A stretch of 64,000 nt of DNA from a virus. The translations under genes were made by a program, and so were the position numbers. Every line of letters begins with the position of its first letter. Positions within the stretch are counted from its first letter, which is position 1. The DNA lies in the IMG/VR virus record IMGVR_UViG_3300036768_001490, positions 62,001 through 126,000 of that record; one strand, given 5' to 3'. Below the pieces are notes generated by a model. The model was not told where the DNA came from. It worked only from the letters and a program-made list of their open reading frames with translations, and searched no databases. Of this stretch, positions 15,373-32,228 are shown piece after piece.

Positions 15373-15374
15373 GG

Positions 15375-15794
15375 TCACTTCACCCACACCCTCTGGCCGT
15401 CAGCCAGGCGCAGGCAGCGCGACCGAGGGGAGAACAACCAGATGGTGATGCGCGGCTGGTTTGCCATGCATACCTCGCGGCAACGCCATACATGGTGCTC
15501 GTCCTGGCTGCTGGACACCAGCAACAGGACCACAGGCAGGCGTCGGGAGCGGGCGCCGTAATAGAGGGACTTACCCACTGCCTCGGCCCAGTCGGGTGCC
15601 CAGGCCACGGCGACGGCATGGTGAGGGGTCAGAAGGTCGATGCGCGTGCCGTCGTAGTTGCTTGCCCCGGCCTGGGCCGGCAGGCCGCTGGAGGTCAGGC
15701 TGGCTGCCAGGCATCCAGCCCAGTCCTCCTCTTCGGGAACGTTGCCGCCGGTCAGCAGGCGGCGCAGCCACGACCGGAAGTGCTGGAGCATCAC
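15375..15794 (-). CDS. Degenerate PD-(D/E)XK nuclease-like protein
   Basis: The protein has 139 residues. The order YDGTRIDLLTPHHAVAVAW, then WAEAVGKSLYYGARSRRLP (both cited in part), then a hydrophobic VVLLLV strand, follows the core of small PD-(D/E)XK endonuclease-like domains, where one expects D, then E-x-K on the next strand and a Q/K-LYY helix. Here the Asp of RIDLL and the LYYGA helix remain, but the strand expected to carry E-x-K reads AVAVAWAP, so the key acidic residue and lysine look absent. It is probably a non-catalytic relative. It lies between two unknown genes within the polymerase block. Confidence 0.5.
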   Translation of the reverse strand: MMLQHFRSWLRRLLTGGNVPEEEDWAGCLAASLTSSGLPAQAGASNYDGTRIDLLTPHHAVAVAWAPDWAEAVGKSLYYGARSRRLPVVLLLVSSSQDEHHVWRCREVCMANQPRITIWLFSPRSRCLRLADGQRVWVK

Positions 15795-18381: not shown

Positions 18382-20136
18382 TCAACCTCCCAGGATCTCG
18401 ACAGGGGTGTCCACTGTGATTTCACCGCGCCGATAGGCCCGGATGGCATCCTGGCGGGAACGGAACACGCGCGGGCGCTTCCTTGACACGGAGCGCCGCC
18501 GGGTGGACTCGTACAGCCCGCCCAGGTACTCCTGCCCCGGCATGTGTACCGGCGACTGGAAGTCCGCCGGCGAGAACAGGGACCGGCTGGGCAGCAGCCG
18601 GTCGTATGCCTCCTTCACCGCCTCCGGCGACGTCGGCACGTGGAACTGCATGGCGTCGCCGTCGAAGTCGGCGTTGAACCCCTTGGTCACGAGGGGGCTC
18701 AGGTGGATGGTGTTTCCGCTTACCAGCCGGGGGCGAAAGGCCAGGATGCCGAACTTGTGCAGCACGGGGGCCCGGTTGACGTACACGGGGCGCTCTTCCA
18801 TTTCCTCTTGCATGATGGAGCGGGCCAGCGGCGTCCGCTCCCGGACGTGGCGCAGGGCCTCGCGGATCGGCAGGCCGCGCCGCCGGAGCCGGCGGACGAT
18901 GAACTTGCTGTAGACGTCGAACGCCTGGTTCTCCGGGATGCCGATGGAGTCCATGTCCATGTCCGGGTCCGGCGTGATGACGGCCCGGCCGACGTTGTCC
19001 ACGGTGGTGGAGAGCAGCTTGCGCTGCATCGTGCCGAACTTGGGGGATTCTCCGAAGATGCTCTTCAGGATCCCACTGACGCCCTTCTCCTGGAGCTTGG
19101 GGTGCATGGGCTCGCCGAGACCCACGACGGCCTGGAAGGCGTGGTAGACGGCCAGGCGCTCGGGGCCCGCGTTCTTCTTGCCCACCTGCTTGACCATGTC
19201 GTTGTAGTTGCGGATGGCGTCCAGCAGCTCCTTGTACAGGTAGTTGGGGTCCGATATAAGCGGGATGCCCGTGTCTCCCAGCATGGACACGGGCCGGAAG
19301 GCAGGCGGCAGCACGGGCACCCGATGCAGCACCCAGTCGCGCGGGTGCAGGCCGAGCTTCTTGGCGCTGTCCAGGTACTGCCAGCGACGGATCGCCTCGT
19401 CCCGGTGGGAAGCGCGGCCGTACCGCCACTCCGCCCGGGCCTTGTCCAGCTCCTTGTCCAGGTCCAGCTGGTCCAGCGCCTTGGCCACGGCCTGGGGTCC
19501 GCTGCCGTACCCCGGCAGAGACTCGTCTCCGGCCAGCACCGCCTCGAACTTCTTCTGCGTCAGGCCCAGGATGCGGCGGATCGGCTCCTCCATGACCGGG
19601 TTCGGCAGCGGCTCGGGCAACTCGATGGCGGCCCAGCGCCGGCCGCCGTGTCCACCCGTCAGTTTGGGGTCAAACAGGCCGCCGGGGATGGGACTCATGT
19701 TGTCGTCGAAGCGCACCAGCTCCCCGGAACGGATGATGCGGTTGCCTGCCAGCTCCTTGACGTCCTGGTCCGTCAGGGCCATGACGTTTGCCCGGTGCCC
19801 GTCCGGGACGACATTGATGCCTGCCGCCTTCAGCTGGTGGACGAACTTATCGTACACGTAGGGCACCTTGGGCTTCACCGGCGTGAAGCCCAACATGAAC
19901 TGGAGCCAGAACTGTTCGTTCTTCTGTCCCCGGATGAGGCGGGCGTCCCGGAGCGTCTCCGTGGCCCCGTGGGACATCAGGGCGTTGACGTCCAGCATGG
20001 ACAGCCTCTTCGAGTTGCTGACGAGCACGCCGCAGACCGCGTACAGGTGGACGTCAGCGACCGTGATGTCGTAGACATCGGCCAGGCTGTCCCTGCCGGC
20101 AGACGGACAGTATGGCCGGACCTCCCTGACGCGCAT
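18382..20136 (-). CDS. rpoB-rpoC (central part): IntC of a split intein, then RNA polymerase beta C-terminus fused to beta' N-terminus
   Basis: Residues 1-41 are the C-terminal half of an intein (SLADVYDITVADVHLYAVCG, then VLVSN). Ser42 opens the extein SKRLSMLDVNALMSHGATE, matching the beta C-terminus after GEM (compare cellular GEMEVWALEAYGA). From about residue 111 the sequence is beta': RIIRSGEL, PGGLFDPKLTGG, IELPEPLPNPVMEEPIRRIL, APVLHKFGILAFRP and the Mg-binding NADFDGD at 488-494, so catalysis is likely intact. It ends after VDTPVEILGG, near the point where cyanobacterial beta' is split. The missing remainder is at 10486-15372. Maturation needs trans-splicing with the upstream gene, 31 bp away. 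Confidence 0.92.
   Translation of the reverse strand: MRVREVRPYCPSAGRDSLADVYDITVADVHLYAVCGVLVSNSKRLSMLDVNALMSHGATETLRDARLIRGQKNEQFWLQFMLGFTPVKPKVPYVYDKFVHQLKAAGINVVPDGHRANVMALTDQDVKELAGNRIIRSGELVRFDDNMSPIPGGLFDPKLTGGHGGRRWAAIELPEPLPNPVMEEPIRRILGLTQKKFEAVLAGDESLPGYGSGPQAVAKALDQLDLDKELDKARAEWRYGRASHRDEAIRRWQYLDSAKKLGLHPRDWVLHRVPVLPPAFRPVSMLGDTGIPLISDPNYLYKELLDAIRNYNDMVKQVGKKNAGPERLAVYHAFQAVVGLGEPMHPKLQEKGVSGILKSIFGESPKFGTMQRKLLSTTVDNVGRAVITPDPDMDMDSIGIPENQAFDVYSKFIVRRLRRRGLPIREALRHVRERTPLARSIMQEEMEERPVYVNRAPVLHKFGILAFRPRLVSGNTIHLSPLVTKGFNADFDGDAMQFHVPTSPEAVKEAYDRLLPSRSLFSPADFQSPVHMPGQEYLGGLYESTRRRSVSRKRPRVFRSRQDAIRAYRRGEITVDTPVEILGG
20014..20136 (-). mobile_element. Split intein, C-terminal half (IntC)
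   Basis: Forty-one residues at the start of the beta/beta' gene include a block-F-like DVYDITVADVHLYAVCG and end VLVSN before Ser+1. The length and the Ser-Asn ending resemble naturally split DnaE-type inteins, whose IntC is about 35-40 residues. The partner IntN is the last 98 residues of the preceding gene. Confidence 0.88.
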
Positions 20137-20167
20137 GCTACGCCCTCCCTGGAGACCGCGCCGGACC

Positions 20168-23100
20168 CTAGCACTCCATCAGGTCGTCTCCCGCCGCCAG
20201 CTGGCACGCCAGCTTCCTGCTGCCATCTTGCAGCACGAACTCATGGTTGCGGGTGCATACCAGCGTGGCTCCGTCCGCCAGCTCGACCTCCACCAGCGTG
20301 GACGCGGGCACCCGGTAGTGGAACCAGTCCGTGACGGCGTACCAGCCTGCCTCCTGGCCCTCCAGGCCCCGCGCGCGGACGCGCAGAGGCAGACGTCCCT
20401 CCACCACCTGCCGGATCGTCCGCGGCCCCTGGTCCGTGTGCAACACGGTGTCGCCCAGGAAGCAGCCCATTTCCCCTCCCTTGGACGGGCTCTCGTCCAG
20501 GGAGTACGCGCCCCCGCCGCGGCCCTGGCCCTTGGAATTGCCGGACAGCATCGGCTTGCCGTTGCGACGGACATACAGCAGACCTGTCTCCATTTCCGCG
20601 CAGTAGACGATGCCGTTGTAGTCCTTGGTCCAGAAACGGCCCTCGCCCGGACCGGCCCAGGCATCGGTGCGCTCCGGCACCACGCGGCAGACCCAGGAGG
20701 GCAGGAAGTGGGAACTGGGCCCGGGCGGCCGCCGCTGCACGATGGCGCCAAGTCCCGCCCGGATGAACAGCTCCTGGAAATCGTCCGCCAGGCCCCGGGA
20801 CAGGGACACGTAGCCCAGGCGCCGCCCCGCCTCGTCCCTGCCGCAGCTAGCCAGCCAGGCGGCACAGGTCCGGCGCAGCACGTCCGGCGGCTGCTCCAGC
20901 AAGTGGCGTGGCAGGCGCTTGGAGCGGGCATGCCCGCCGTACCGCCGCAGGTGTTGCGCAAGAGGACGGTGCGCCAGGACGTAACCCTTACCGGGGACGT
21001 ACTCCCACGGCAGGGCCAGACGTTGCAGCAGCTCCTCCAGCGCCGCAGCCCGCGCCGGCCCGTCGCCCGGCTTTTGCCCACGGACGAAGAAGGTGACGTC
21101 CGCGCGCCGCGGCGTCACCCGGGCATGGCCCGCGCCGGCCCACCAGCCGACCAGCTCGGCGTAGTCCCCGCAGTCCATCTCCTGGCCGCACACGAGCAGT
21201 CTGGCAGCGCAGACCTGGCCATTCTCCACTGGCCAGCCAAACTGGGGCACGCGGAAGCGGCGGCCATGCACCTCCTGCGCCGGCAGCAGGGCGCACACCG
21301 GGTCGGGACACTGGCCCAGGTCCGCGTACAGGCGGTGGTTTCCCGTGACCAGGTAGTCGAGGTCGCGGCTCGTGAAGCCGTACAGGGTGCCACGGAAGGA
21401 AGCCCGGATGAGGCGCAGCGGCCGCTCGAACACCAGCCGGCCGCCACGCACCGTGGCCAGCTCGTCGTCGCAGCGCACCTGGGGCCAGGGCACCCAGCCA
21501 CGGGCAGTCAGGGCCTCCGTGGCGGCATCGAAGCACTCCGCCGTGTGGTGCAGCTTCATGAAGAAGCGGTTGCCGGTAGCGATCCCGCGGACCTTCATGT
21601 CCCTTTCCGGCCAGAAGATGTCCTCGGTGTCCTTCAGGCCGTGCCGCTCCAGCTGCCGCCGCACCCAGGCGGTCATGTCCTCCTCGCCCTCGAAATCAGT
21701 CACCTTGATGGGGCGTCCCAGCTTCCGGGCCAGCTTGCCCAGCATGGCCTCCGCGATCTGGGCCGGGTTGACACGGGTGATGACGCCGAGCGGGTTCAGC
21801 AGGACTTCCAAAGGCTCGCCGTCCTCGCCCCGCGGCATCAGGCTGTCTGGCACAATGGCGGCGACCACGCCCTTGTCCCCGTAGCGCCCGGACATCTTGT
21901 CGCCGACCTGCATTGGCTCGACGGACTTGACCACGACGACCGGCCCGCTCTTGCTCCAGACCACGTCGGTGACGACGCCCGGCTGGTGGTGCTTCCACAG
22001 CACGCTCTCGTCGTTGTACCCAGGCTGCTTCTTCCGGTGGACCTTGTTCTGTGCATGCTCCCGCTGCCGCGCCGCCAAGATGAGCGGGTCGCCGTACTGG
22101 ACGACCGTGCCCGGCTTGACCGTGCCGTCGTCGTTGATGGTGTCCAGCACCTTCCGCTCGAACTTCTGGGGAAAGAGGCCGATGAAATCGCGCTTGCCCA
22201 GCTTGTGTCGGTCGCTCACCTCCAGACTGTGCTGGTACATGTGCTCGGACGACATCTTCTTGGCCATGCCCTCGGAGATCACGACGGCGTCCTCGTAGTT
22301 GTACCCCAGGTAGGGCCAGTAGGCCACGCGGGCATTGACCCCCAGGGCCATCGCGCCGTTGTTGTCCGTGTAGTTGCTCCGGGCCAAAAGCTGGCCGCGT
22401 CGGAAGTTGTCGCCTGGTCGGACCAGGGGGATCTGGTGGATGAACGTCTTGCGGTTGAATGGATAGTTGTCGTACAGCTCGATCTCTTCCTTCCGGCCAT
22501 CCGCGTACTGGACCTTGATTACTCCGTCACGGACGTCGATGACCCGTCCGTCCGCACCAGCCTCCACTGCGCCAAGGTGCTTGCCGTACTCTTCCTCAAA
22601 AGATCTCTTCCCCTTGGACTCTGGTGTGCCGGATTGTACAAGCGGAGCCTCGGCGGCGATGAGAGGAAGGGCCTGCGTAATGTAGCGGCTGCCCATCGCC
22701 ACGCGCTGTCCCTTGACCATGCTTTTAAGCGGCACCAGGTTGCCCAGAGGGCTGAACGTGTCCTCGAAATGAGGGATGACAAAGTCGATGTCTTTCTTGC
22801 GCACATAGGACAGTTTGCCTCCCTTCATCACAGGCACGCGCTTGCTGTCCCAGCGGAGGACGTCCGGCGTGGCCACGGCCGCGTCGGCCAGGTCGCGCGG
22901 CCCCTTCCAGACCAGCTTTCCCCTCCGGTCGAGCAGCTGCACGTACAAGCTGCCGTCACTCCCCTTGCGCGCACCCCGGGCCACATGCAGGTCCACGCCT
23001 GCCCGGAAGCTGTTACCAGACCAGTGACCCGGAGTGCCGTCCCGGCGGACGTAGAGAAGTCCGCCCGGCACCGTGGCGCAGTAGACGGGGCCGTCGTAGT

Positions 23101-25330
23101 CCAGCCGGTAGTAGGACGCTGGCGATGCGCCCCATTCCTCGTCGCCAGCATAGAGGCGGACGCGGTGCCGGCGCCGCTGCCCGTCCGGCTCAGGACGCAG
23201 CACGCTGGGGATGCCCAGCGTGAAGGCCAGCAGGACCATCTGCTTGGCCAGGGCCAGGCTGCTAGACTGGAACTGGACGAACCGGCCGTGCCGGTCCTTC
23301 CTTCCACCGGCCAGCAGCAGGACCGCGTACAGGCGGCGGCGGGACTCCAGGCTGCCGGCCAGCAGACAATCCGGCAGCCTGCGGCCGTGTGGACCGTCCA
23401 GCTCCCGGCAGAGACCGGCCAGGCGCCTGTCCTCCAACACGAAGACCTGGCCGGCCGCGTCATACTCCCAGACAAGTCCCAGGCGCGTCAGCAGGGCGGT
23501 GAGCCGCGCGTGCTGGGAACGGTACGCTTGCGGACGGCAAGACAGGCGCAGCCTGTCCGGGTTGATGACGTCTTCCTCCTGGTCAGCCGTCCCGGCCGCG
23601 GCCGTGTACCAGCAGACCAGCTCCGCCCAATCCTCCGCCGACCCGGGCCGACCCGAGGTCCACTCCTCCCAGGCACCGTATAGATCATCGCCGCGGTAGC
23701 AGGGACCGCCGCCGAGATGGAGGCGGGGCCGGCCAAAGGCTGCCGCGGCCGTCTCTTCCTGGTAAGTCCCGTCCGCCTGGCCGCGCGGCCGCACCCACAG
23801 GCGATGGTCCGGCGTGACCAGATAGCTCAGCAGCCGCGTCCGCACACCCAGCAGCTTGCCACGGTAATGGCCACAGTGCAGCTGCGTGGGCCGGTGCCAC
23901 TCCACGGTGCCACCGACCAGGCAGGCCAGCTCGTCCTTCTGGGCCACTTCCGGCCACGCCTTCCAGCCGGAGCGAGTCATCACCTCGGTCCGGGCGTCGT
24001 AGCACTCCGGCGTGCGCAGCGGGTCGATGAAGCCCAGGTGCGACGGCTGCACGGAGCGGGCCTCGTCCGGAATGGAGTCGATGTTCGGGATGCCGCCCTC
24101 TCCCATGCGCGTGATCCGCGTCTGCTTGTCAAACACTTCCGCCGGGTTGATCTCCTCCAGCGCCTCTGCCAGGCCGCTGCCCAGCAAGACCTCCTCGATC
24201 TGAGGCGTCAGGGCACCGCTCGGCATCTTGTCCAGCGAGCCGGCCAGGGAGACCTTGCGGAACAGCTGCGCCAGGGTCCGGCCGTGGTCGCGGGCGATGC
24301 GCTCGGCGAACATGTCCTCGGGACCGAGGAAGACCTGGTAAGCCAGGTGGTCGCGGTCGTCCGGGTCGGTTTCCCGGCGGCTGACCTGGAGCAGCTTCTG
24401 CGTGGCCTTGAGGATGACCTCCTTGCTGAGCCGGTCATACGGCTGCCCCAGGGTGTGGCGGGTGACTTCCGGGTCCAGCTCCATCGCCTGGAACTTGGCG
24501 ACCAGCTTTTGCCGTTCGCTGCCCTCGTCCCCGTCCCGCTCGTTCTTCCGCAGCAGGCGGTCGGCCAGTTTTCGCATGGTCCCCCGGTCGGGATACTGGG
24601 CATTGGCGGCGTACAGATCGTTGCCCCAGTAGGCCCGCACCTCCCGGTCGGTGGCCCCCATAGCTTGCAGCAGCGGCAGTAGCGGCATCTCCGCCTGGCC
24701 CAGGCGGATCTTGAACAATCCCTTTTCTGGGTCCAGGAAGTAACGGTGCGAGACGCCCTTCCCTGGCAGCACGTTGACGTGGCTTTCCAGCTCCCCGTTG
24801 TCCTTGATGCGGGTGAAGATGCCCGGCCGCAGCCGTTGCTGGTGGCTGACCGTGTACTCGTTGCCCCGGTGGATGAACGTCCCCAGGCTGGACAGATAGG
24901 GCACGCGCGCGATGACCTGGGTGCGACGTTGTAGCTCCTTGCCAGTGGCCGAGTCCTCCAGCACCCAGGTGCCCTGCAAGCGCCGGGCCAGCGTGCCGCC
25001 CGTGAGAACGGCCTGCTTGCGCTGACGGCGAGAGAAGCGCTCCGGGTCGGCCCACTTCACGTCGGTCAGGCGCAGACGGTGCTTGCCGTCATCCAGCGGA
25101 GCAATGGACTGGGCGGCATGGAGCACGTTGTCGTAGAGGGAACGGCGCGTGGCATCGGTGTCGCCAAAGGCGCGCAATGCCGGCAGAGGTGACGGCGGAG
25201 CCGCGCCGGCGCCGGCGAGCACGGCGTCGGCCCTCGTTGGTGGCAGTAGCGACGACACGGCTTGCCCCTTCCTTGCCAAGTCACCTTCCCGTCCGCCGCT
25301 ACCGTGTCCGGCCGGACGGAGCGCGGCCAT
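20168..25330 (-). CDS. rpoB (N-terminal part): RNA polymerase beta with two inteins and a C-terminal IntN
   Basis: The precursor has 1720 residues. Exteins are 1-442, 774-1265 and 1599-1622. Beta signatures include FIHRGNEYTVSHQQRLRPG (residues 152-170), HLGFIDPLRTPE, GYNYEDAVVISEG, the catalytic-site lysine motif MQVGDKMSGRYGDKGV, LLNPLGVITRVN and MKLHH, then YSLDESPSKGGEMG. Two large inteins interrupt at RTPE and HHTAE; the chain then stops inside a third, at residue 1720, leaving an N-terminal half. After two cis events and one trans event the beta part would continue into the next gene's product. The start at 25330 has GGGGG upstream and overlaps the previous gene by 32 bp. No alpha, omega or sigma subunit is seen in the window. 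Confidence 0.93.
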   Translation of the reverse strand: MAALRPAGHGSGGREGDLARKGQAVSSLLPPTRADAVLAGAGAAPPSPLPALRAFGDTDATRRSLYDNVLHAAQSIAPLDDGKHRLRLTDVKWADPERFSRRQRKQAVLTGGTLARRLQGTWVLEDSATGKELQRRTQVIARVPYLSSLGTFIHRGNEYTVSHQQRLRPGIFTRIKDNGELESHVNVLPGKGVSHRYFLDPEKGLFKIRLGQAEMPLLPLLQAMGATDREVRAYWGNDLYAANAQYPDRGTMRKLADRLLRKNERDGDEGSERQKLVAKFQAMELDPEVTRHTLGQPYDRLSKEVILKATQKLLQVSRRETDPDDRDHLAYQVFLGPEDMFAERIARDHGRTLAQLFRKVSLAGSLDKMPSGALTPQIEEVLLGSGLAEALEEINPAEVFDKQTRITRMGEGGIPNIDSIPDEARSVQPSHLGFIDPLRTPECYDARTEVMTRSGWKAWPEVAQKDELACLVGGTVEWHRPTQLHCGHYRGKLLGVRTRLLSYLVTPDHRLWVRPRGQADGTYQEETAAAAFGRPRLHLGGGPCYRGDDLYGAWEEWTSGRPGSAEDWAELVCWYTAAAGTADQEEDVINPDRLRLSCRPQAYRSQHARLTALLTRLGLVWEYDAAGQVFVLEDRRLAGLCRELDGPHGRRLPDCLLAGSLESRRRLYAVLLLAGGRKDRHGRFVQFQSSSLALAKQMVLLAFTLGIPSVLRPEPDGQRRRHRVRLYAGDEEWGASPASYYRLDYDGPVYCATVPGGLLYVRRDGTPGHWSGNSFRAGVDLHVARGARKGSDGSLYVQLLDRRGKLVWKGPRDLADAAVATPDVLRWDSKRVPVMKGGKLSYVRKKDIDFVIPHFEDTFSPLGNLVPLKSMVKGQRVAMGSRYITQALPLIAAEAPLVQSGTPESKGKRSFEEEYGKHLGAVEAGADGRVIDVRDGVIKVQYADGRKEEIELYDNYPFNRKTFIHQIPLVRPGDNFRRGQLLARSNYTDNNGAMALGVNARVAYWPYLGYNYEDAVVISEGMAKKMSSEHMYQHSLEVSDRHKLGKRDFIGLFPQKFERKVLDTINDDGTVKPGTVVQYGDPLILAARQREHAQNKVHRKKQPGYNDESVLWKHHQPGVVTDVVWSKSGPVVVVKSVEPMQVGDKMSGRYGDKGVVAAIVPDSLMPRGEDGEPLEVLLNPLGVITRVNPAQIAEAMLGKLARKLGRPIKVTDFEGEEDMTAWVRRQLERHGLKDTEDIFWPERDMKVRGIATGNRFFMKLHHTAECFDAATEALTARGWVPWPQVRCDDELATVRGGRLVFERPLRLIRASFRGTLYGFTSRDLDYLVTGNHRLYADLGQCPDPVCALLPAQEVHGRRFRVPQFGWPVENGQVCAARLLVCGQEMDCGDYAELVGWWAGAGHARVTPRRADVTFFVRGQKPGDGPARAAALEELLQRLALPWEYVPGKGYVLAHRPLAQHLRRYGGHARSKRLPRHLLEQPPDVLRRTCAAWLASCGRDEAGRRLGYVSLSRGLADDFQELFIRAGLGAIVQRRPPGPSSHFLPSWVCRVVPERTDAWAGPGEGRFWTKDYNGIVYCAEMETGLLYVRRNGKPMLSGNSKGQGRGGGAYSLDESPSKGGEMGCFLGDTVLHTDQGPRTIRQVVEGRLPLRVRARGLEGQEAGWYAVTDWFHYRVPASTLVEVELADGATLVCTRNHEFVLQDGSRKLACQLAAGDDLMEC
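20171..20464 (-). mobile_element. Split intein, N-terminal half (IntN)
   Basis: The last 98 residues of the beta gene begin with Cys1 (CFLGDTVLHTDQGPRTI) after GGEMG, contain the block-B-like CTRNHEFVL and then stop after LAAGDDLMEC. No endonuclease sequence follows; the complementary 41-residue IntC starts the next gene 31 bp downstream. Confidence 0.88.
20537..21535 (-). mobile_element. Intein 2 in RNA polymerase beta
   Basis: The intein spans 333 residues (1266-1598). Cys1 (CFDAATEALTARGW) follows KLHHTAE; TGNHRLYA is the block-B-like motif; the end is LLYVRRNGKPMLSGN before Ser+1. The central domain again looks like a decayed LAGLIDADG enzyme (LVGWWAGAGH and CAAWLASCGRD). Similarity of start, end and layout to intein 1 suggests that the two share an origin. 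Confidence 0.88.
23012..24004 (-). mobile_element. Intein 1 in RNA polymerase beta
   Basis: The intein spans 331 residues (443-773). Cys1 (CYDARTEVMTRSGW) follows RTPE; a block-B-like TPDHRLWV is at positions 64-71; the end is GLLYVRRDGTPGHWSGN before Ser+1. The middle resembles a LAGLIDADG endonuclease, but the two expected acidic repeats read LVCWYTAAAG and LYAVLLLAGG, without the catalytic aspartates, so homing activity is probably lost. Confidence 0.88.
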
Positions 25331-26297
25331 GTCCCCCTTCTGTCCCGGCAGGCACTGGCGGCACCATGACCGGCTCGGGAATGGCGTAGATCGCGTCCGG
25401 CTGCTGCTCGAACAGGCGCCGCTGCTGGCGACGCAAGGCGTTCTCCAGGAGCTTCCGCCGCGAACGCTTCTCTATCCGGTCGTACACGATGGCCCCCGTC
25501 AGCAAGGCGCTGAGGCCGGCATAGGCCCCATAAATGCCGGGAAGGCGCTCCAGGAAGCCGGGAATGCGATCCATGAGGCCGCCGATGTCCAGTGCCTCCT
25601 TTTCCAGGGAAGTGCCCAGCAGCTGCTGCATCCTGCCCCACAGTGCGTCGAGCGCCTTGCCGACCTTGACCATGTCCGGCTCGTCCTTCTCCTGGCCACG
25701 GTCGGCGGCCTTCTTGGGAGAAACGCCAGGCAGCGACTCCAGGGGCTCGTCGTACTGCGCGAGAATGGCCTGGCGGAACTCACGCCGCGCCTTGCTCAGC
25801 TCCTCCTCGTTTTCCCGCCGCCGCTGCTCCCGGAGCAGGTTCGTCAGGCCACCGTAGCCCAGGCCGAAGCCGCCGAGCGCGGCGGCGAACATGGCGGGGT
25901 AGTACCAGGGGAAGCCACCCTTGGAACGGGGCGGCGACACCTCCACCTGCACCTTCTCCACCTGCCCCTCCTTCACCTGCCCCTGCGGGGACTCCTCCAC
26001 CGGGTAGGGCAGCGGCAGCAGGGCAGGCCCCCAGCGCCGACGCTTGCGCTGCTTCGAGCGCATCATGTTGTACATGCCCACCGCGCTGGCGCCGGCGGCG
26101 CCGATGCCCAACGAGGCAAGGCCCAGTTTGCGGATGTCCTGCAATGCCTCGTCCTGGAGCTTGGACAGCTTCAGCCGCTTCACCGCGTTGACGAAGTTCT
26201 GCACGTCGTCCGGCGTGACATTCATCCCTTGCTTACTGGCGATTTCTTTCACCTGTGACGGGGAGAGAAAATTCGCGTTGCTGCGGAGGCCAAACAT
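25299..26297 (-). CDS. Membrane-associated virion-like protein, 332 aa
   Basis: The start at 26297 (MFGLRSNANFLSPSQV) has GGAG eight bases upstream even though it overlaps the previous gene by 65 bp; an ATG at 26225 would avoid overlap but has a poorer site. There is a hydrophobic segment near residues 55-75 (LGLASLGIGAAGASAVGMY), a second near 130-155 (YYPAMFAAALGGFGLGYGG), a helical charged part and a third hydrophobic stretch near 260-275, then a basic Arg/Gln-rich tail. No enzyme motif is present. The 3' end overlaps the beta start by 32 bp, so expression is probably coupled to the polymerase. Confidence 0.5.
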   Translation of the reverse strand: MFGLRSNANFLSPSQVKEIASKQGMNVTPDDVQNFVNAVKRLKLSKLQDEALQDIRKLGLASLGIGAAGASAVGMYNMMRSKQRKRRRWGPALLPLPYPVEESPQGQVKEGQVEKVQVEVSPPRSKGGFPWYYPAMFAAALGGFGLGYGGLTNLLREQRRRENEEELSKARREFRQAILAQYDEPLESLPGVSPKKAADRGQEKDEPDMVKVGKALDALWGRMQQLLGTSLEKEALDIGGLMDRIPGFLERLPGIYGAYAGLSALLTGAIVYDRIEKRSRRKLLENALRRQQRRLFEQQPDAIYAIPEPVMVPPVPAGTEGGHGRAPSGRTR

Positions 26298-26667
26298 GTC
26301 CTAACTCCACTGTCTTGTCACTCAAGAACGGCGTGCGCGTGCCATCTTCCAGGTAATACTCAAACCACTCGACGTAATGCTTGGTGGTCCCGCGCCAGAA
26401 TCGTTCCAGGTAAAACAGCTGAAACCAGCCGTTGCCGCAACACTCCATGACGTCGCAGAACAGCTTGTTCTCCCGAGGCACGGTCACGTCAAAGAACGCA
26501 TTGCGGAAGTCCGAGACCTTGACGACGCGAGCCTCGTACTCGTCCTCGGGCAGCACGGGCGCGGTCGGCCCACGGAACGGCAGGCCGTCCACAGACGACC
26601 TGCCCCACCAGAGCCGCTGCCCGGCGCTGTGCGTCCGGTTGCTGAACTTGACCAGGCTGGAAGGCAT
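26233..26667 (-). CDS. Conserved-looking aromatic protein, 144 aa
   Basis: The 144-residue protein has a distinctive core: DFRNAFFDVTVPRENKLF, CGNGWFQLFYLERFWRG and TTKHYVEWFEYYLEDG. The density of aromatic residues and the TTKHYVEWFEYYLE segment look like a conserved small phage protein that I associate with planctomycete genomes; no function is known to me. Two cysteines precede CGNGW. Its 3' end overlaps the next gene by 65 bp. Confidence 0.5.
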   Translation of the reverse strand: MPSSLVKFSNRTHSAGQRLWWGRSSVDGLPFRGPTAPVLPEDEYEARVVKVSDFRNAFFDVTVPRENKLFCDVMECCGNGWFQLFYLERFWRGTTKHYVEWFEYYLEDGTRTPFLSDKTVELGHVWPPQQREFSLPVTGERNRQ

Positions 26668-26685
26668 GGACGACGCTCGCGGGTT

Positions 26686-27096
26686 CTAGGGGAAGACACG
26701 CCCCGTCTTCCGCTTCTTCTTGGCATAGTCCTTGATGGCCCGCCGGCGGCGGAGGGCTTCCGTCTCCCGCTTGTACGCCTCCACCAGCTCCATGTTCTTG
26801 ACTTCCTCGATGTCCTGGTAGTCGATGTCGGTGGCGCGAGACAGGGCGTAACCGCCGATGCCGCCAATGATGGGCGGAGCAGCCAGAGCCAGCGGTAGGC
26901 CGTACATGAACAAGCCCTTTGCGACCCCCTCGCCCAGGCCGTACAACTTGTCCAGCATGCCCGTGATGAAGGCGCGCTTCTCCAGCAGGTCGTTGGCTGC
27001 CTGGACCCGTTCCAGCATCTGCGCCGGTGTCAGCTGCTCTTCCACACAGCGGGAGAGGAAGCCGACCTTGAAAGCCTCCCTGGCAGAAAGCGCCAT
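26686..27096 (-). CDS. Small membrane-associated virion-cluster protein
   Basis: The start at 27096 (MALSAREAFKVGFLSRCVEE) is chosen because GGAAGG precedes it; a longer start at 27114 lacks a site. The first 35 residues match a pattern seen in minor structural proteins of large phages (AFKVGFLSRCVEEQLTP). A hydrophobic glycine-rich segment follows (residues about 58-82), then a charged helix with a very basic end (KDYAKKKRKTGR). Probably a virion or membrane-associated factor; function unknown. Confidence 0.5.
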   Translation of the reverse strand: MALSAREAFKVGFLSRCVEEQLTPAQMLERVQAANDLLEKRAFITGMLDKLYGLGEGVAKGLFMYGLPLALAAPPIIGGIGGYALSRATDIDYQDIEEVKNMELVEAYKRETEALRRRRAIKDYAKKKRKTGRVFP

Positions 27097-27119
27097 GCCC
27101 CACGTCCTTCCCATACCAT

Positions 27120-27509
27120 TTACAGCCCGCCGCCGTATCCTGGCATGACCAGGCTGAGAGGACGACGGCGCACCAGATCCCGGCGGGCACTCGCGTCCGA
27201 CGGCATCCCCTGCTGCTGGGCCTTGCGGCAGACCTCGATCATGGCATCCAGGTAGTCTTGCAGGCGCTGCCGGTTGGCCTGGTCGAACTGGTCCTCCGTG
27301 TAGGGCACGCGCCGGCTGTTGTTGAGCATGTCCTGGATGCTGCGCAGGCGGTGCAGGCAGGTGCGGACGGAAATGACCTCATACGAGTTGTCCCGCTCGT
27401 CCTCTATGTGGATAAGGCCGCGCTCGGCCCAGAAGCGGAGAGGACCCAGGCGTACCAGGTCGCCAGCGGTCCCTGTGACCGCGCCGTCCGTGAACGTGGT
27501 ACTTCCCAT
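27120..27509 (-). CDS. Unrecognised protein, 129 aa
   Basis: The start at 27509 (MGSTTFTDGAVTGTAGDL) is preferred over 27605 because the longer form would translate through an 11-bp perfect hairpin. The first 60 residues look beta-rich (VRLGPLRFWAERGLIHIEDE) and the rest helical (FDQANRQRLQDYLDAMIEVC). I know no family. It lies in the operon of virion-cluster genes, 23 bp upstream of the next start. Confidence 0.45.
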   Translation of the reverse strand: MGSTTFTDGAVTGTAGDLVRLGPLRFWAERGLIHIEDERDNSYEVISVRTCLHRLRSIQDMLNNSRRVPYTEDQFDQANRQRLQDYLDAMIEVCRKAQQQGMPSDASARRDLVRRRPLSLVMPGYGGGL

Positions 27510-27549
27510 CAGCAAGCCATCCCGTCTTGCCGGCGAAGAGGGATCGGAA

Positions 27550-27576
27550 CCCGCCCCGGCACCGCGCCGGGGCGGG
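27550..27576 (-). terminator. Perfect 11-bp hairpin between small genes
   Basis: Arms CCCGCCCCGGC and GCCGGGGCGGG pair perfectly around the five-base loop ACCGC. No T-run follows on the minus strand, so it may be an attenuator, an RNA-processing or stability element rather than a full terminator. It lies between the stop at 27628 and the start at 27509. Confidence 0.5.
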
Positions 27577-27627
27577 CCGTTCGCAGCCCTCCTGCACGTC
27601 GCCACACATCACGTGAGGAGGAAGCTC

Positions 27628-28035
27628 TCAGTACGGCACCCAGTTCTGTGACGGTCCGGCGGCGCCAGGCCAGCCAGCCTGGTTGAACACGTGGACCAGG
27701 CCGTCCACCAGGACAGCGACGAGCCGGAGCCACAGCTTCTTGAGGATGGGATCAATCAGTCCCGCCTCCAGGAATTCCGGCACCTTGGGAATGTCTATCG
27801 GGGCAATGACCTCGTCGTAGAACTTTGCCGCGGCCGCCAGGACGGCCTCCTTCTTGTCCGCGCCGCTGGCGCCGCGGAACTGTTCTGCCAGCAGCACCAG
27901 GAACGTCACGGCCCGGATCGCCATCGACCAGACCTCGTCCAGGGAGAGGTTGGCCGGCATGCTCTCCCGTGCGCGGGTAATGAATTTGGCCACGTGGCCA
28001 TCCATCTGCTCGGTCAGGTTGCTGTCACTGTCCAT
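27628..28035 (-). CDS. Unrecognised helical protein, 135 aa
   Basis: The start at 28035 (MDSDSNLTEQMDGHV) has GGAGG seven bases upstream. The protein is almost wholly helical, with FITRARESMPANLSLDEV, WSMAIRAVTFLVLLAEQF and a repeated PKVPEFLEAGLIDPILKKLW motif before two hydrophobic helices. The mild hydrophobicity of the last third leaves open a holin-like membrane role, but no clear transmembrane pair is visible. About 30 bases encoding WSMAIRAV resemble a stretch in the cassette gene at 40566-41102. Confidence 0.45.
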   Translation of the reverse strand: MDSDSNLTEQMDGHVAKFITRARESMPANLSLDEVWSMAIRAVTFLVLLAEQFRGASGADKKEAVLAAAAKFYDEVIAPIDIPKVPEFLEAGLIDPILKKLWLRLVAVLVDGLVHVFNQAGWPGAAGPSQNWVPY

Positions 28036-28077
28036 TGCATGTCCTCCGTCCAAGTGTCCAGTAAAGTGACCTTCGCC

Positions 28078-29304
28078 CTAGCCGCCAAAGAGCTTGGGGA
28101 CCGCGGCGCCGATGATGCCAAGGGCCACGTTTCCTAACCCGAAGGACTGGGGAGAGAAAGGCGTACCGACTAGCAAGTTGAGGACATCGCCGACCAGCAC
28201 GCCATTCATGTAATTGCCCGCCGCGTTCATGGCCAGCTGCCCCAACTGGTGGAAAGTCACCCGGCCAGGGCGCGACTGCGGGTCGGGCATCTGTTGCGCC
28301 GCGTACATGGCTCCCATCGTCGAGCCGGCCAGCCTCGGTGAGGCCCCCGACTGCCACAGCGTCTGGCCCAGCGCGTTGATGTTGACGTCATAGGTTGACG
28401 GCTGGCGCCGCGCGTCATCGCCCAGAGTGTCGGCGAAAGCCCGCTTGATGAAGAAGTCCACGGCTTTCCGGTAGGGCTCCGCCAGCGGCACGTCCGCCAG
28501 CTGGTCCGACCCTCCCTTACCCATCCACGCCGACCGCGGCGACGGAGAAGGGGAGTTGCCGCCGGCGCCCATGCTGTTGATGCGGATGTCATGAAGCTGC
28601 TGGATAGTGTCCTTCCAGGCACTGCTGGGCTGCTTGCTGGTCGTCAGGCCATCCTTGCCGGAAAGGTCTGCGTTGGACAGGGAGGCCGTGTCGTCCCCCG
28701 GCTCGCCCCGGAGCAGCTCCGGGTCGTTGAAGCGGCGGCCGGTCATCTTGTTGGTGATGCCCCACAGCAGACCAGGAGAAGCACCCACCAGACCGCCAAG
28801 GATGAGCCCCGTGGTGCCCAGGTTGTCGCCGAACTGGTCGGGCAGCACAGAGGCCAATAGCTTGCCTCCGGCCCAGCCCAGGCCGGCGCCAAGCAGGCCC
28901 GATGTCAGCATGGCAGCCAGAGGGGAAGCCTGGTTGGGCAGGCCGATGACCGGATACTGTCCGGGAAAGAAGTTCAGGGCCTCGCCGATGCGCCGCAGCA
29001 CCTTGCTATACGCGACTTTAACCCAGCGCGTGTCCGGGTCCGACAGCTCGTCCAGGGACAGGGGAGACTGCCGCACCGCCGTGCGGCCGGCCCCGTGTTC
29101 CGCCGCCAGCTTGCAGCGGGCGAAATCGGTAGCCGTTGCCTGCGGGGCAAACAGGGCCACGCGGCCGCTGTCCGCGTGGCAGTAGTAGCCGACCGGGCTC
29201 AGAGTGTAGACGCCGGCAGCGCTCTGGCGCACGTCATGGGCCAGGGCGGCGAGCTTCTCGGCCCAGGTGTCGATGGTTTCCGGCAGTTCTTCCCAGCGCA
29301 ACAT
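28078..29304 (-). CDS. Glycine-zipper virion-like protein, 408 aa
   Basis: The start at 29304 (MLRWEELPETIDTW) has GGGAGG five bases upstream; a GTG at 29349 is possible but lacks a site. Hydrophobic, glycine-rich segments occur at residues about 125-150 (LAAMLTSGLLGAGLGWAGG), 160-185 (GLILGGLVGASPGLLWGI) and at the very C-terminus (LGNVALGIIGAAVPKLFGG). The centre is polar. The design is like that of the other virion-cluster proteins with membrane-active segments. A CCGGTTATG motif about 60 bp upstream may promote it. Confidence 0.5.
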   Translation of the reverse strand: MLRWEELPETIDTWAEKLAALAHDVRQSAAGVYTLSPVGYYCHADSGRVALFAPQATATDFARCKLAAEHGAGRTAVRQSPLSLDELSDPDTRWVKVAYSKVLRRIGEALNFFPGQYPVIGLPNQASPLAAMLTSGLLGAGLGWAGGKLLASVLPDQFGDNLGTTGLILGGLVGASPGLLWGITNKMTGRRFNDPELLRGEPGDDTASLSNADLSGKDGLTTSKQPSSAWKDTIQQLHDIRINSMGAGGNSPSPSPRSAWMGKGGSDQLADVPLAEPYRKAVDFFIKRAFADTLGDDARRQPSTYDVNINALGQTLWQSGASPRLAGSTMGAMYAAQQMPDPQSRPGRVTFHQLGQLAMNAAGNYMNGVLVGDVLNLLVGTPFSPQSFGLGNVALGIIGAAVPKLFGG

Positions 29305-29362
29305 CCGTGCCTCCCACTTGGGGCCGGGAGAGTCCATTCCCAGGACCACGGCTGCCGCCCAT

Positions 29363-29372
29363 CATAACCGGC
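29363..29372 (-). promoter_or_regulatory. CCGGTTATG motif, copy 1
   Basis: GCCGGTTATG on the minus strand, in the gap before the 408-residue gene. The same CCGGTTATG occurs in the gaps at 34306-34315 and 38975-38984. The TATG part could also serve as a -10 (TATGAT here). Confidence 0.4.
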
Positions 29373-29414
29373 CGCTCCTGGCCAATCCAGAGAAAAGAGG
29401 CCAGGGCAGGCCGG

Positions 29415-32228
29415 CTACAGCTCGCAGCGGTCGCCGGTACAGGCCCAGGAGCGCACGGGGCTGGCACTGTCCTCCTGCTCGTAATGCACCAGCTTGGCCC
29501 AGTTAAGCGTGGGAAAGCTGGCCACGAACTCGTCGTACTGCGCGCGGGTGAGTTCCTCGTTGGGGGCGTAGGTGTAGCGGCCGTTGTCCTTGGGCAGGAA
29601 GCTCAGGCCGGTGATATGGTCCCAGTGTTCCTGCCGGTAGACCCAGGCGCCGACCTCCAGCCACTCGTCGGCGTCGATGTAGATGGTGGCGGACACGGAA
29701 TGCTCCGCGTAGTTCTTCTTCCAGCTCAGCCAGTTCTCCAGCTGCTGCACCGCCGTCAGGTCGTCCCGCGTGATGGCCCCCGCCGGCGCCGCCTTGGGGA
29801 AGCCGAAGACCAGCAGCTCGCCCGGTGCCTCCGGGGCCGGCGCGTGCGGCACGCCACTGTCGATCAGGAAGCGGGCGATGGCGCTGTCCTTGCGCTCGCG
29901 CACCCAGCGGACCTGGTAGGGGGCGAAGCGCGGGCTGATGCCGGCTGCGCAGTCAAAAAAGATGCTGGAATCGCCGCCTGGCTTGATGCACGTGTCCGCG
30001 GCAGACAGGGCGATGCCGAAGCGGGGCGCGTACTGGGCCTTGGTGTCATGCACCACCTGCCGGAGGGCGCGCTGCAACTCGGCCAGACCCGCCGCGCCGT
30101 GATGCAGCAACGGGCAGTCGGCGTGGCCGGTGATGTCCACGCCTAGCAGCCGCTCCTCCTCGCAATTCTTCTTCCAGTCCGGCCGGATGTACTGGAACTG
30201 GGTGCAGGTGGACTGCATCAGTCCGAACAAGGTGGCCAGGCGGACCTTCCGCTTCAGGGAGTCCACCGTGTCGTCCGGCCGGGCGACCGCGATGCTCAGG
30301 TTGCAGAACTCATATGGCCGCAGGATGACCTCGGCGCACGGGTTCACGCCGAAGCGGGCCTTCCTGCGCCGCGCCGGCCGGTGGTTGACCGCCGCCTGCC
30401 GGTTGTAAATGCCGCGCTCGCCCGAGCGGGAATTGAGCAGGGCCAGCCACTCCCGCAAGAAGACGTCGATGGGGGGCCGTTCCTCGTAGACGGCCGAGTT
30501 GTTGGCCATCGTCAGGTACTTGCCGTCCGTCCAGTACGTCCGGTCGTTGTACCAGTCCCCCGACTTGATGTCGCGCATGCCGGCCGAGGCCAGATCGGAA
30601 AGGGACAGCGTTGCGGCCCGGCGCACGCCGCCGACCTGGACGATGCGCCCCGTGAAGCAGGCCAGACGGTGGGCGTCCGTGTCATCCAGGTAGCGACCCT
30701 GGCGGGCCAGGATGACGTTACGGCTGAACTCCATCAGCTCCAGAAACGGGCCAGGCCCCGAGGCCAGACCGCCCTTGGTACGAAGACGGCTGCCGGCCGG
30801 ACGCACGCCGCTGACGTCGAAGCGCACGTCATGGCCGTCAAACCAACGCTGGAGGGCCTCGAAGTAGGCCGTGCACCAGCCCTCCGTGCTGTCGGTCACA
30901 GCAAGGACGTCCGCCTTCTTGCCCCGCTGCTTCTTGACGCGCGGCAGCTCGCCGACGTAGTCCGACTCCACGCTGAAGCCGACCCCCGTGCCCTGCATGA
31001 GAATGTAAAGCATCTCAGGGAACGAGAAGATGTCCGCCATCGGCTGGTAGGCGCAGTTGCCAGTAACGATGCAGCCGTCCAGGACAAAGGACTGCTCGCC
31101 TGGCACCTCCAGGCACCAGACGTCCGTGTCCTCGCCGTGGCTGCCCACTTCCAGGACGAGAGGAGGCAAGGAGGCCGCGTCCGTGCCACCGGCGTCCGCG
31201 GCAAGGGACACGGCCTCGGCCGGAGCCGGGCACAGCTTGTCTCCGGCCACGATCCACGGCAGGACGTTGCCGTCCTGGCCAAGCCAGCGGTGGTCGCGCG
31301 TGGCATGCACGACATGCCGCTCTAGCCCCCGCGCCAGCACGATGGGATAGGTCACGTCCCTGCCGTAGCAGCGCACCGTGGCCGTGCGCCAGTTCCCCAT
31401 GTGGGTCAGGACGTCCACCGTGTCACCGTCAGCAAAGTCGAGAAAGGAACGCACGCCGTCCCGCGTCCAGAAGCGCGTGTCACGCCGCAGGCAGTTGTAC
31501 ACGCCGACGTGGCAGCGGTCGAGAGCCGGCCCCGCCATCTGCACCACGCGCAGGGCGGGGGACACCTCCAGGCGGTACATGGCGTCCGCCAGCTCGTCCC
31601 ACTCGGCCGCCGATAGTTTGCCGGCCACCAGCGGCAGGCGCTGGAACCAGGGGATGACCCGCTCGTACACTGCCTCCCGCCACGTCTCGCGCCGGCCGTC
31701 CTGGTCGCGCCAGCGGGAGAACTTGCCCATGAACTGGTAGTATTGCAGGTCGGTCGGAAAGTGCTTCCGGTCCTCCAGGAAGCGCGCGGCAACCTCGGGC
31801 GGGATGGGGCGCAGCTCCCGCGCCCGGCGCCGCTCCTCCCGGTAGTTCTGGTACTGCTCCGCCGCCTCGAACAGGCCGGCGCCCCACAGCTGCTGGATGA
31901 CCAGGCGCTGGACCTCCTCCACCCCCGGACGGGTGATGCCCTGGGCCGCCAGGTTGTTGCAGACGGCACGGGTGATCTGTTCGATCAGCGCCTGCTCCTC
32001 GCCAGCTCCCGGCACAAGGGAAGAAGGGCCACCGGCGTCCGCGCGGATGCTGTGGAAACACCGGGACAGGGCCCGGCGGATCTTGTCCGGGTCGAAGGGG
32101 ACGGCCTGGCCGTCCCGCTTCACGCACGTCCAGCCCGCGGACATTTCCTCGGGAGTGAGTGCTTTGCCGTTGCGAAGACCGGGATGGATGGCCGCTGCGC
32201 GCGCGGCCGACGAAGTGCCATGTTGCAT
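29415..32228 (-). CDS. nrdJ: Adenosylcobalamin-dependent ribonucleotide reductase (class II) with an intein
   Basis: The precursor has 937 residues. An ATP-cone-like domain starts near residue 33 (CVKRDGQAVPFDPDKIRRAL). After removal of a 146-residue intein, Cys392 joins HVGVYN, the position of the reducible active-site Cys. NPCAE at 629-633 gives the thiyl-radical Cys631 and Glu633, and Cys642 follows eleven residues after Cys631, the spacing known for Lactobacillus RTPR (C408, E410, C419). The C-terminal CTGDRCEL supplies the shuttle pair Cys930/Cys935. The enzyme makes deoxynucleotides for phage replication and needs B12 from the host. The start has GGGAGG. It is flanked upstream by a TATAAT box. 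Confidence 0.92.
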   Translation of the reverse strand: MQHGTSSAARAAAIHPGLRNGKALTPEEMSAGWTCVKRDGQAVPFDPDKIRRALSRCFHSIRADAGGPSSLVPGAGEEQALIEQITRAVCNNLAAQGITRPGVEEVQRLVIQQLWGAGLFEAAEQYQNYREERRRARELRPIPPEVAARFLEDRKHFPTDLQYYQFMGKFSRWRDQDGRRETWREAVYERVIPWFQRLPLVAGKLSAAEWDELADAMYRLEVSPALRVVQMAGPALDRCHVGVYNCLRRDTRFWTRDGVRSFLDFADGDTVDVLTHMGNWRTATVRCYGRDVTYPIVLARGLERHVVHATRDHRWLGQDGNVLPWIVAGDKLCPAPAEAVSLAADAGGTDAASLPPLVLEVGSHGEDTDVWCLEVPGEQSFVLDGCIVTGNCAYQPMADIFSFPEMLYILMQGTGVGFSVESDYVGELPRVKKQRGKKADVLAVTDSTEGWCTAYFEALQRWFDGHDVRFDVSGVRPAGSRLRTKGGLASGPGPFLELMEFSRNVILARQGRYLDDTDAHRLACFTGRIVQVGGVRRAATLSLSDLASAGMRDIKSGDWYNDRTYWTDGKYLTMANNSAVYEERPPIDVFLREWLALLNSRSGERGIYNRQAAVNHRPARRRKARFGVNPCAEVILRPYEFCNLSIAVARPDDTVDSLKRKVRLATLFGLMQSTCTQFQYIRPDWKKNCEEERLLGVDITGHADCPLLHHGAAGLAELQRALRQVVHDTKAQYAPRFGIALSAADTCIKPGGDSSIFFDCAAGISPRFAPYQVRWVRERKDSAIARFLIDSGVPHAPAPEAPGELLVFGFPKAAPAGAITRDDLTAVQQLENWLSWKKNYAEHSVSATIYIDADEWLEVGAWVYRQEHWDHITGLSFLPKDNGRYTYAPNEELTRAQYDEFVASFPTLNWAKLVHYEQEDSASPVRSWACTGDRCEL
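31056..31493 (-). mobile_element. Mini-intein in ribonucleotide reductase
   Basis: The element is 146 residues (246-391). Cys1 (CLRRDTRFWTRDGVR) follows HVGVYN; ATRDHRWLG is the block-B-like motif; the end is VWCLEVPGEQSFVLDG, then CIVTGN before Cys+1. There is no endonuclease domain. The insertion point is directly at an active-site cysteine, so unspliced protein should be inactive. Confidence 0.85.

What the first reader, a model, noticed from the sequence alone, without database searches (positions are those of the whole stretch)
20537..31493. Five inteins in two enzymes, all at strictly conserved sites, endonucleases absent or decayed
Seen: inteins in beta (two, 331 and 333 aa), the split one, beta' (167 aa) and ribonucleotide reductase (146 aa). 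The two larger have central regions resembling LAGLIDADG domains whose acidic motifs read LVCWYTAAAG and LVGWWAGAGH; the others lack a nuclease. Several end in Gly-Asn or Ser-Asn rather than His-Asn. The reductase intein interrupts exactly before an active-site Cys. Inferred: the elements are now fixed or regulatory rather than mobile.
Basis: partly seen in the sequence, partly recalled or inferred. Interest (0 to 1): 0.7.

Follow-up and report, generated by a model that had tools for sequence, protein, structure and literature searches.

The report
Seven-intein phage with split RNA polymerase
This large bacterial virus carries seven self-removing protein inserts (inteins), five of them in the stretch examined, and one is split over two genes so that its RNA polymerase probably has to be stitched together from two proteins; the inserts' DNA-cutting parts are mostly mutated or gone, which looks like ordinary genetic parasites late in their life cycle rather than regulators.

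Summary
The window is part of a 182,719-bp phage record and encodes five inteins: three in an RNA polymerase beta–beta'N polypeptide (331 aa, 333 aa, and a split one of 98+41 aa), one in beta' (167 aa), one in class II ribonucleotide reductase (146 aa). Two more lie outside the window, in the portal protein and ThyX. Relatives with empty sites fix the junctions to the residue. The spliced product matches the intein-free beta–beta'N protein of Salmonella phage Arash, the most detected virion protein there. Splicing residues are intact in all seven. The two LAGLIDADG inteins lack both catalytic acids; of 55 related inteins only these two do. The reductase intein lies exactly before the Cys119 equivalent. 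"No longer self-mobile" is supported; "fixed" at most for this lineage (nearly all relatives have empty sites); "regulatory" is not supported. Gly-Asn/Ser-Asn ends are a family trait, not decay. Best reading: inteins late in the homing cycle, plus a natural split intein that trans-splices a phage RNA polymerase and is conserved in a 72%-identical relative whose two halves lie 1.9 kb apart. Splicing itself is inferred, not shown.

The parts
20168..25330 (-). RNA polymerase beta gene (N-terminal part), 1720 aa, holding inteins beta-a and beta-b and ending in the N half of a split intein
   Evidence: Pfam RNA_pol_Rpb2_6 E 4e-49; bacterial beta chains E 1e-60
23012..24004 (-). Intein beta-a, 331 aa, RTPE|C...GN|SFRAG; Hint plus LAGLIDADG fold, both catalytic acids lost
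   Evidence: empty sites; fold: TliVMA, PhoVMA, PI-SceI; acids; tree, relative rate
23591..23620 (-). Block C LAGLIDADG motif of beta-a, LVCWYTAAAG (acid column = Ala)
23303..23332 (-). Block E LAGLIDADG motif of beta-a, LYAVLLLAGG (acid column = Gly)
20537..21535 (-). Intein beta-b, 333 aa, HTAE|C...GN|SKGQG; both catalytic acids lost
21125..21154 (-). Block C LAGLIDADG motif of beta-b, LVGWWAGAGH (acid column = Ala)
20837..20866 (-). Block E region of beta-b, CAAWLASCGR (acid column = Cys)
20171..20464 (-). Split intein N half (IntN), 98 aa, GEMG|C..., blocks A and B, followed by a TAG stop
   Evidence: TIGR01445 above cut-off
20137..20170 (-). 34-base junction: TAG stop plus spacer with Shine-Dalgarno-like GGAGGG; the C half is in another frame
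20014..20136 (-). Split intein C half (IntC), 41 aa, blocks F and G, ...VSN|SKRLS
   Evidence: TIGR01443 above cut-off
18382..20136 (-). Gene for IntC + C-terminal beta + N-terminal beta' (NADFDGD motif)
   Evidence: Pfam RNA_pol_Rpb1_2 E 8e-28; same order as Arash gp206 and Vibrio D69
10486..15387 (-). Gene for the C-terminal part of beta', with an intein
   Evidence: Pfam RNA_pol_Rpb1_5 E 2e-15
14239..14739 (-). Mini-intein of beta', 167 aa, AGFL|C...SN|SKQLN, no endonuclease
29415..32228 (-). Class II (B12-dependent, RTPR-type) ribonucleotide reductase gene with an intein
   Evidence: PHROG 367 E 3e-118
31056..31493 (-). Mini-intein of the reductase, 146 aa, GVYN|C...GN|CAYQ; +1 residue is the Cys119 equivalent; no endonuclease

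Best explanation
A set of class-1 inteins late in the homing cycle, in a large phage with a multisubunit RNA polymerase of the Arash type. Each entered its gene by homing (inferred) and has since lost (beta', reductase, split) or inactivated (beta-a, beta-b) its LAGLIDADG endonuclease; the splicing module is kept because RNA polymerase and reductase cannot work without removal of the insert. Four of the five in the window should splice in cis. The fifth is a natural split intein: beta is translated as two proteins, with IntN at the end of one and IntC at the start of the next, which associate and trans-splice to give the continuous beta-beta'N chain found uninterrupted in relatives. Shown: anatomy, boundaries, loss of acids, retention of splicing residues, selection on the split halves. 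Inferred: splicing, endonuclease inactivity, virion packaging of the polymerase.
For: Exact boundaries and empty sites in relatives. Cys1, TxxH block B, block F and terminal Asn in all seven, with Ser, Cys or Thr at +1. Restored beta-beta'N of 1501 aa is collinear with Arash gp206 (1525 aa) and Vibrio D69 (1527 aa). Split intein kept in L012 (IntN 52%, IntC 54% identity), halves 1.9 kb apart there, dN/dS 0.45 at dS 1.0 versus flanking exteins 0.25-0.27 at dS 0.85. Both acids lost only in beta-a and beta-b out of 55 family members. The beta-a inteins of ten phages form one clade (98/94); the window copy pairs with L158 (100/95) but on a branch of 1.37 against 0.29; relative-rate test in the endonuclease region 52 to 15 changes, P 6e-6. 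The beta-a model matches TliVMA, PhoVMA and PI-SceI over its whole length; PhoVMA is an experimentally dead endonuclease that lacks acids of the same two blocks (PMC8966425). Relatives of the beta' and reductase mini-inteins with an endonuclease exist.
Against: No splicing or cleavage was measured. All seven lack the penultimate His, which slows or blocks splicing in some inteins (own knowledge). The faster change of beta-a is not shown to be confined to the endonuclease: the splicing part leans the same way (15 to 8) and the two parts do not differ significantly (Fisher P 0.27). The reductase intein model is of low confidence (pLDDT 50), so its Hint fold rests on sequence. The near-identical contig G001/L011 may not be an independent sample.
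Confidence: 0.86

Rival explanations
1. The split halves do not splice: beta works as two separate subunits, as in phiKZ/AR9-type jumbo phages, and the intein halves are leftover tails.
For: Fragmented beta subunits are normal in jumbo phages (PMC7598289); no splicing has been measured.
Against: All catalytic residues are kept in both halves and in both phages, with dN/dS 0.45 (pN 0.34, pS 0.55 over 139 codons) at a synonymous distance of about 1; intein-free relatives have one continuous chain.
Confidence: 0.06
2. The inteins have become regulatory: splicing responds to redox state, metals or DNA damage and times the activity of reductase and polymerase.
For: Conditional splicing is known for other inteins (own knowledge); the reductase insertion is before a redox-active Cys; seven inteins in proteins of transcription, nucleotide metabolism and packaging.
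Against: Insertion at or near catalytic sites is usual for inteins (PMC1635734, PMC5050341); related inteins with LAGLIDADG motifs occupy the equivalent Cys of class III reductases, as plain mobile elements would; nearly all relatives do without.
Confidence: 0.06
3. The elements are still mobile, with endonuclease supplied in trans by another element, or with atypical but active nucleases.
For: Presence or absence of the beta-a intein between near-identical phages L013 and L014-L016 shows recent gain or loss at this site; the ThyX intein keeps one acid and the portal intein keeps a Glu in its second motif.
Against: L013 carries both acids, the window copies do not; empty near-matching sites persist in relatives.
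Confidence: 0.08
4. Frameshift or assembly error: the split intein is really one continuous cis intein.
For: The two halves are only 34 bases apart in the window and in different frames.
Against: The C half has its own ATG and Shine-Dalgarno-like site; in L012 the halves are separated by a 1.9-kb ORF whose stop overlaps the IntC start; the near-identical contig L011 agrees.
Confidence: 0.03

Closest known systems
PhoVMA intein (P. horikoshii), a dead LAGLIDADG intein
   Same: Hint plus LAGLIDADG architecture, endonuclease scaffold kept, acids of blocks C and E lost (PMC8966425)
   Different: Archaeal ATPase host gene; sequence identity only about 15-17%
Natural split inteins of phages: fractured genes (Dassa 2009, cited in PMC7090010) and the PolB of phage MIJ3 (PMC6892783)
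   Same: Intein broken between blocks B and F, halves on two genes
   Different: Here in a multisubunit RNA polymerase; no recognisable endonuclease gene between the halves (34 bases in the window, an unknown ORF in L012)
Eukaryotic and viral RNA polymerase inteins (RPB2-a, b, c, RPA2, RPC2; PMC1635734)
   Same: Several non-allelic inteins in second-largest subunits, all near the active site, some ending Gly-Asn
   Different: Here a bacterial-type phage enzyme with several in one molecule, one of them split, and one in beta'
RNA polymerase of Salmonella phage Arash (gp206, gp216; PMC10585845) and Vibrio phage D69
   Same: beta-beta'N fusion followed by a separate beta' part
   Different: No inteins; about 29-30% identity; abundant in virions by mass spectrometry there, untested here
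Mycobacteriophage C1 inteins in portal and ThyX (PMC5050341); ThyX intein of Corynebacterium phage P1201
   Same: Same kinds of host protein as the two extra inteins; the P1201 ThyX intein is the best match of beta-a in the named phage collection
   Different: Insertion sites were not compared residue by residue
NrdD inteins of Vibrio V6Aob, Morganella MP1 and Klebsiella FBKp34 phages
   Same: Related splicing domain (41-48% over 91 aa); in V6Aob and MP1 inserted before the first active-site Cys
   Different: Class III reductase; longer, with LAGLIDADG motifs in V6Aob and MP1

Membership tests
Class-1 intein | In-frame insert absent from homologues, with exact empty sites | tested here: met
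   for the five in the window
Class-1 intein | Cys/Ser at position 1, TxxH in block B, terminal Asn, Cys/Ser/Thr at +1 | tested here: met
   all seven
Class-1 intein | Penultimate His (usual, not obligatory) | tested here: not met
   GN or SN in all seven; a common but not defining feature, also absent in RNA polymerase inteins of PMC1635734
Class-1 intein | Protein splicing activity | not testable with these tools
   needs expression
Active LAGLIDADG homing endonuclease (beta-a, beta-b) | Acidic residue in both LAGLIDADG motifs | tested here: not met
   Ala/Gly and Ala/Cys; 52 and 51 of 55 aligned inteins have the acids
Active LAGLIDADG homing endonuclease (beta-a, beta-b) | LAGLIDADG fold | tested here: met
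   beta-a model residues 116-287 match I-DmoI at Z about 11 and whole inteins at Z about 17; beta-b by alignment only
Natural split intein | N and C splicing halves on separate genes, each fused to an extein half | tested here: met
Natural split intein | Trans-splicing in the cell | not testable with these tools
   selection on both halves is indirect support
Class II (RTPR-type) ribonucleotide reductase | Cys119, Cys408 and Cys419 equivalents | tested here: met
mReC, the multisubunit-RNAP Caudovirales clade of PMC7481178 | Placement in that RNAP clade | not tested
   their sequences were not assembled here; a likely home

The most novel reading that the evidence does not exclude
The split intein is a captured step in the fragmentation of a phage RNA polymerase: it lets the beta-beta'N gene be cut and its halves drift apart (34 bases in one phage, 1.9 kb in another) while the protein stays whole, so trans-splicing has become an obligatory maturation step of a virion RNA polymerase and offers a route to the split subunits of jumbo-phage polymerases.
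Probability: 0.2. Interest if true: 0.72.

Novelty: new variant of a known kind. Interest (0 to 1): 0.52.

Why it matters
Inteins, and split inteins too, are known in phages, but in the papers searched I found no natural split intein in a multisubunit RNA polymerase, and crAss-like phages with up to three inteins per genome were called unprecedented in their density of introns and inteins (PMC7886860), against seven inteins here. It matters in three ways. The origin of fragmented RNA polymerase subunits in large phages is open (PMC7598289), and a split intein is a concrete, testable intermediate. Intact, dead and empty states of one homing site (beta-a) in related phages make the homing cycle directly testable in phages. 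The split intein and the mini-inteins could be useful for protein ligation, if they splice.

Tried and rejected
(1) Intragenomic duplication of beta-a into beta-b and ThyX: BLAST similarity suggested paralogues, but in the tree beta-b groups with other viral inteins (L173, L233) and beta-a with beta-a alleles of other phages, so separate arrivals are more likely; the ThyX branch is too long to place. (2) Pfam Intein_splicing found nothing in the whole genome; TIGR01445/TIGR01443 and direct comparison were needed. (3) Readthrough of the TAG between the halves: rejected, they are in different frames. (4) An endonuclease gene between the halves as in fractured genes: absent in the window (34 bases); the L012 ORF has no match in Pfam, PHROGs or the phage collection. 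(5) The interruption of beta in Vibrio phage D181, taken at first for a split intein: it is a group I intron. (6) Host clue from bacterial genomes: no relative found. (7) Structure of the reductase intein: model too weak to use. (8) Faster evolution of beta-a confined to its endonuclease: not shown.

Full report
What the window is. It is bases 62001-126000 of a 182,719-bp viral record; I fetched the rest piece by piece. The genes concerned lie on the minus strand. The polymerase is bacterial in type: beta matches solved bacterial beta chains at E 1e-60, and the following segment matches beta'. The reductase is a class II enzyme of the RTPR type.

The inteins. Translation gives beta-a (331 aa), beta-b (333 aa), the split halves (98 and 41 aa), beta' (167 aa) and the reductase intein (146 aa), at the coordinates in the parts list. 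All start with Cys, carry TxxH in block B, end in Asn and are followed by Ser or Cys. Outside the window the same genome has an intein of 324 aa in the portal protein (the protein matches the portal protein gp204 of phage Arash at E 4e-55) and one of 360 aa in ThyX. A near-identical contig, G001, carries inteins at the same places; in 19 other related records the same searches found none, one or two.

Proof of the boundaries. In relative L012 (72% identity) the beta-a, beta-b and beta' sites are empty, and about 25 further contigs have the RNAP sites empty with gap 0 at the predicted residue, the split site included. The reductase site is empty in 33 contigs. The spliced beta–beta'N chain of 1501 aa is collinear with the continuous proteins of Salmonella phage Arash (1525 aa) and Vibrio phage D69 (1527 aa). 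In Arash this protein has the highest spectrum count of all virion proteins (PMC10585845), so the window's polymerase is probably a virion polymerase too; that is inference by homology.

The split intein. IntN ends at a TAG; 31 bases later, in another frame and after GGAGGG, the ATG of IntC follows. In L012 the same two halves are separated by a 637-aa ORF without any known relative, whose stop overlaps the GTG of IntC. Synonymous distance between the two phages is 1.0 in the split intein and 0.85 in the flanking exteins, and dN/dS is 0.45 against 0.25-0.27. The simplest reading is a split intein inherited vertically since before the two phages parted, under purifying selection, and therefore working. 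A scan of IMG/VR with its N half found only these two phages.

State of the endonucleases. The beta-a model (mean pLDDT 72, four sequences in the alignment) resembles whole inteins with LAGLIDADG endonucleases: TliVMA, PhoVMA, PI-SceI, PI-PfuI. A scan with four family members brought 79 viral loci; 51 of these plus three inteins of the window phage and that of L013 were aligned. The block C acid is present in 52 of 55 and the block E acid in 51 of 55. The only members without both are beta-a (Ala, Gly) and beta-b (Ala, Cys); the ThyX intein lacks one. PhoVMA, an experimentally dead intein endonuclease, lacks acids in the same two blocks (PMC8966425). The beta-a inteins of ten phages form one clade; the window copy pairs with L158 but on a branch nearly five times as long, and in the endonuclease region it has 52 private changes against 15 (P 6e-6). 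The splicing region leans the same way without significance, so confinement to the endonuclease is not shown. For beta', a relative with an intact LAGLIDADG pair, LLGLLLGDG and GGYFVADGS, sits in L125 at another conserved beta' site, before SGGVGG. For the portal, an allele with GDG and ADG is in G015, where the window phage has GAS and AEG.

The reductase site. A profile of phage reductases aligned to L. leichmannii RTPR places the +1 Cys on Cys119 and keeps Cys408 and Cys419 (that these are the active-site residues is my own knowledge). The mini-intein is 41-48% identical over 91 aa to inteins of class III NrdD in other phages. In V6Aob and MP1 these lie before the corresponding Cys (78 residues precede it in MP1, which fits Cys79 of T4 NrdD by my own knowledge) and still have LAGLIDADG motifs. 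So the same kind of intein has found the same catalytic Cys in two reductase classes. This argues for targeting of a conserved context rather than for redox control.

Mobility. L013 and L014-L016 are 99.5-99.9% identical around the site, yet only L013 has the beta-a intein. The site is occupied with acid-bearing alleles in L158, L159, L162, L163, L164, L168, L169 and L172. Vacant sites with 30-32 of 36 matching bases exist in relatives of the window phage. The elements here are therefore probably immobile by their own means but not fixed in the clade.

Verdict. A confirmed and slightly enlarged observation. Most of it is classic intein biology; the split RNA polymerase and the load of seven are the unusual parts.

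Noticed in passing
L017 (Vibrio phage D181) 13479-13759 and 9682-9889: The intein-free beta gene of D181 is interrupted by a group I intron with a homing endonuclease gene; a second group I intron lies upstream. The polymerase gene attracts introns as well as inteins.
   Followed up: partly
L134 (L012's genome, terminase-like gene): A mini-intein near a Walker A-like motif (QVSK|C...HN|STSL), ending in His-Asn, unlike the inteins of the window phage.
   Followed up: no
L013 1662-4340: RecQ-like helicase with an intein in the DE|CH Walker B motif, present in L013 and in L016.
   Followed up: no
L152 (Thermus phage P23-45) 1849-4512: Class II reductase with an intein at the Cys408-type motif (NP|C...GN|CAEI); part of its N half resembles the window's split IntN.
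   Followed up: partly
window 54660-56345 (-): Protein with TROVE and Ro60-type vWA domains, a Ro60 relative in a phage.
   Followed up: no
window 17542-17688: 36-base tandem repeats coding for DPSMMAAGGMPA in a gene between the two polymerase genes.
   Followed up: no
L012 13097-15010: 637-aa ORF of unknown family lodged exactly between the two halves of the split intein.
   Followed up: partly
L182, L215, L170, L233: Inteins of the same family at what look like further sites of RNA polymerase beta genes in other viral contigs, judged from flanking residues only.
   Followed up: no
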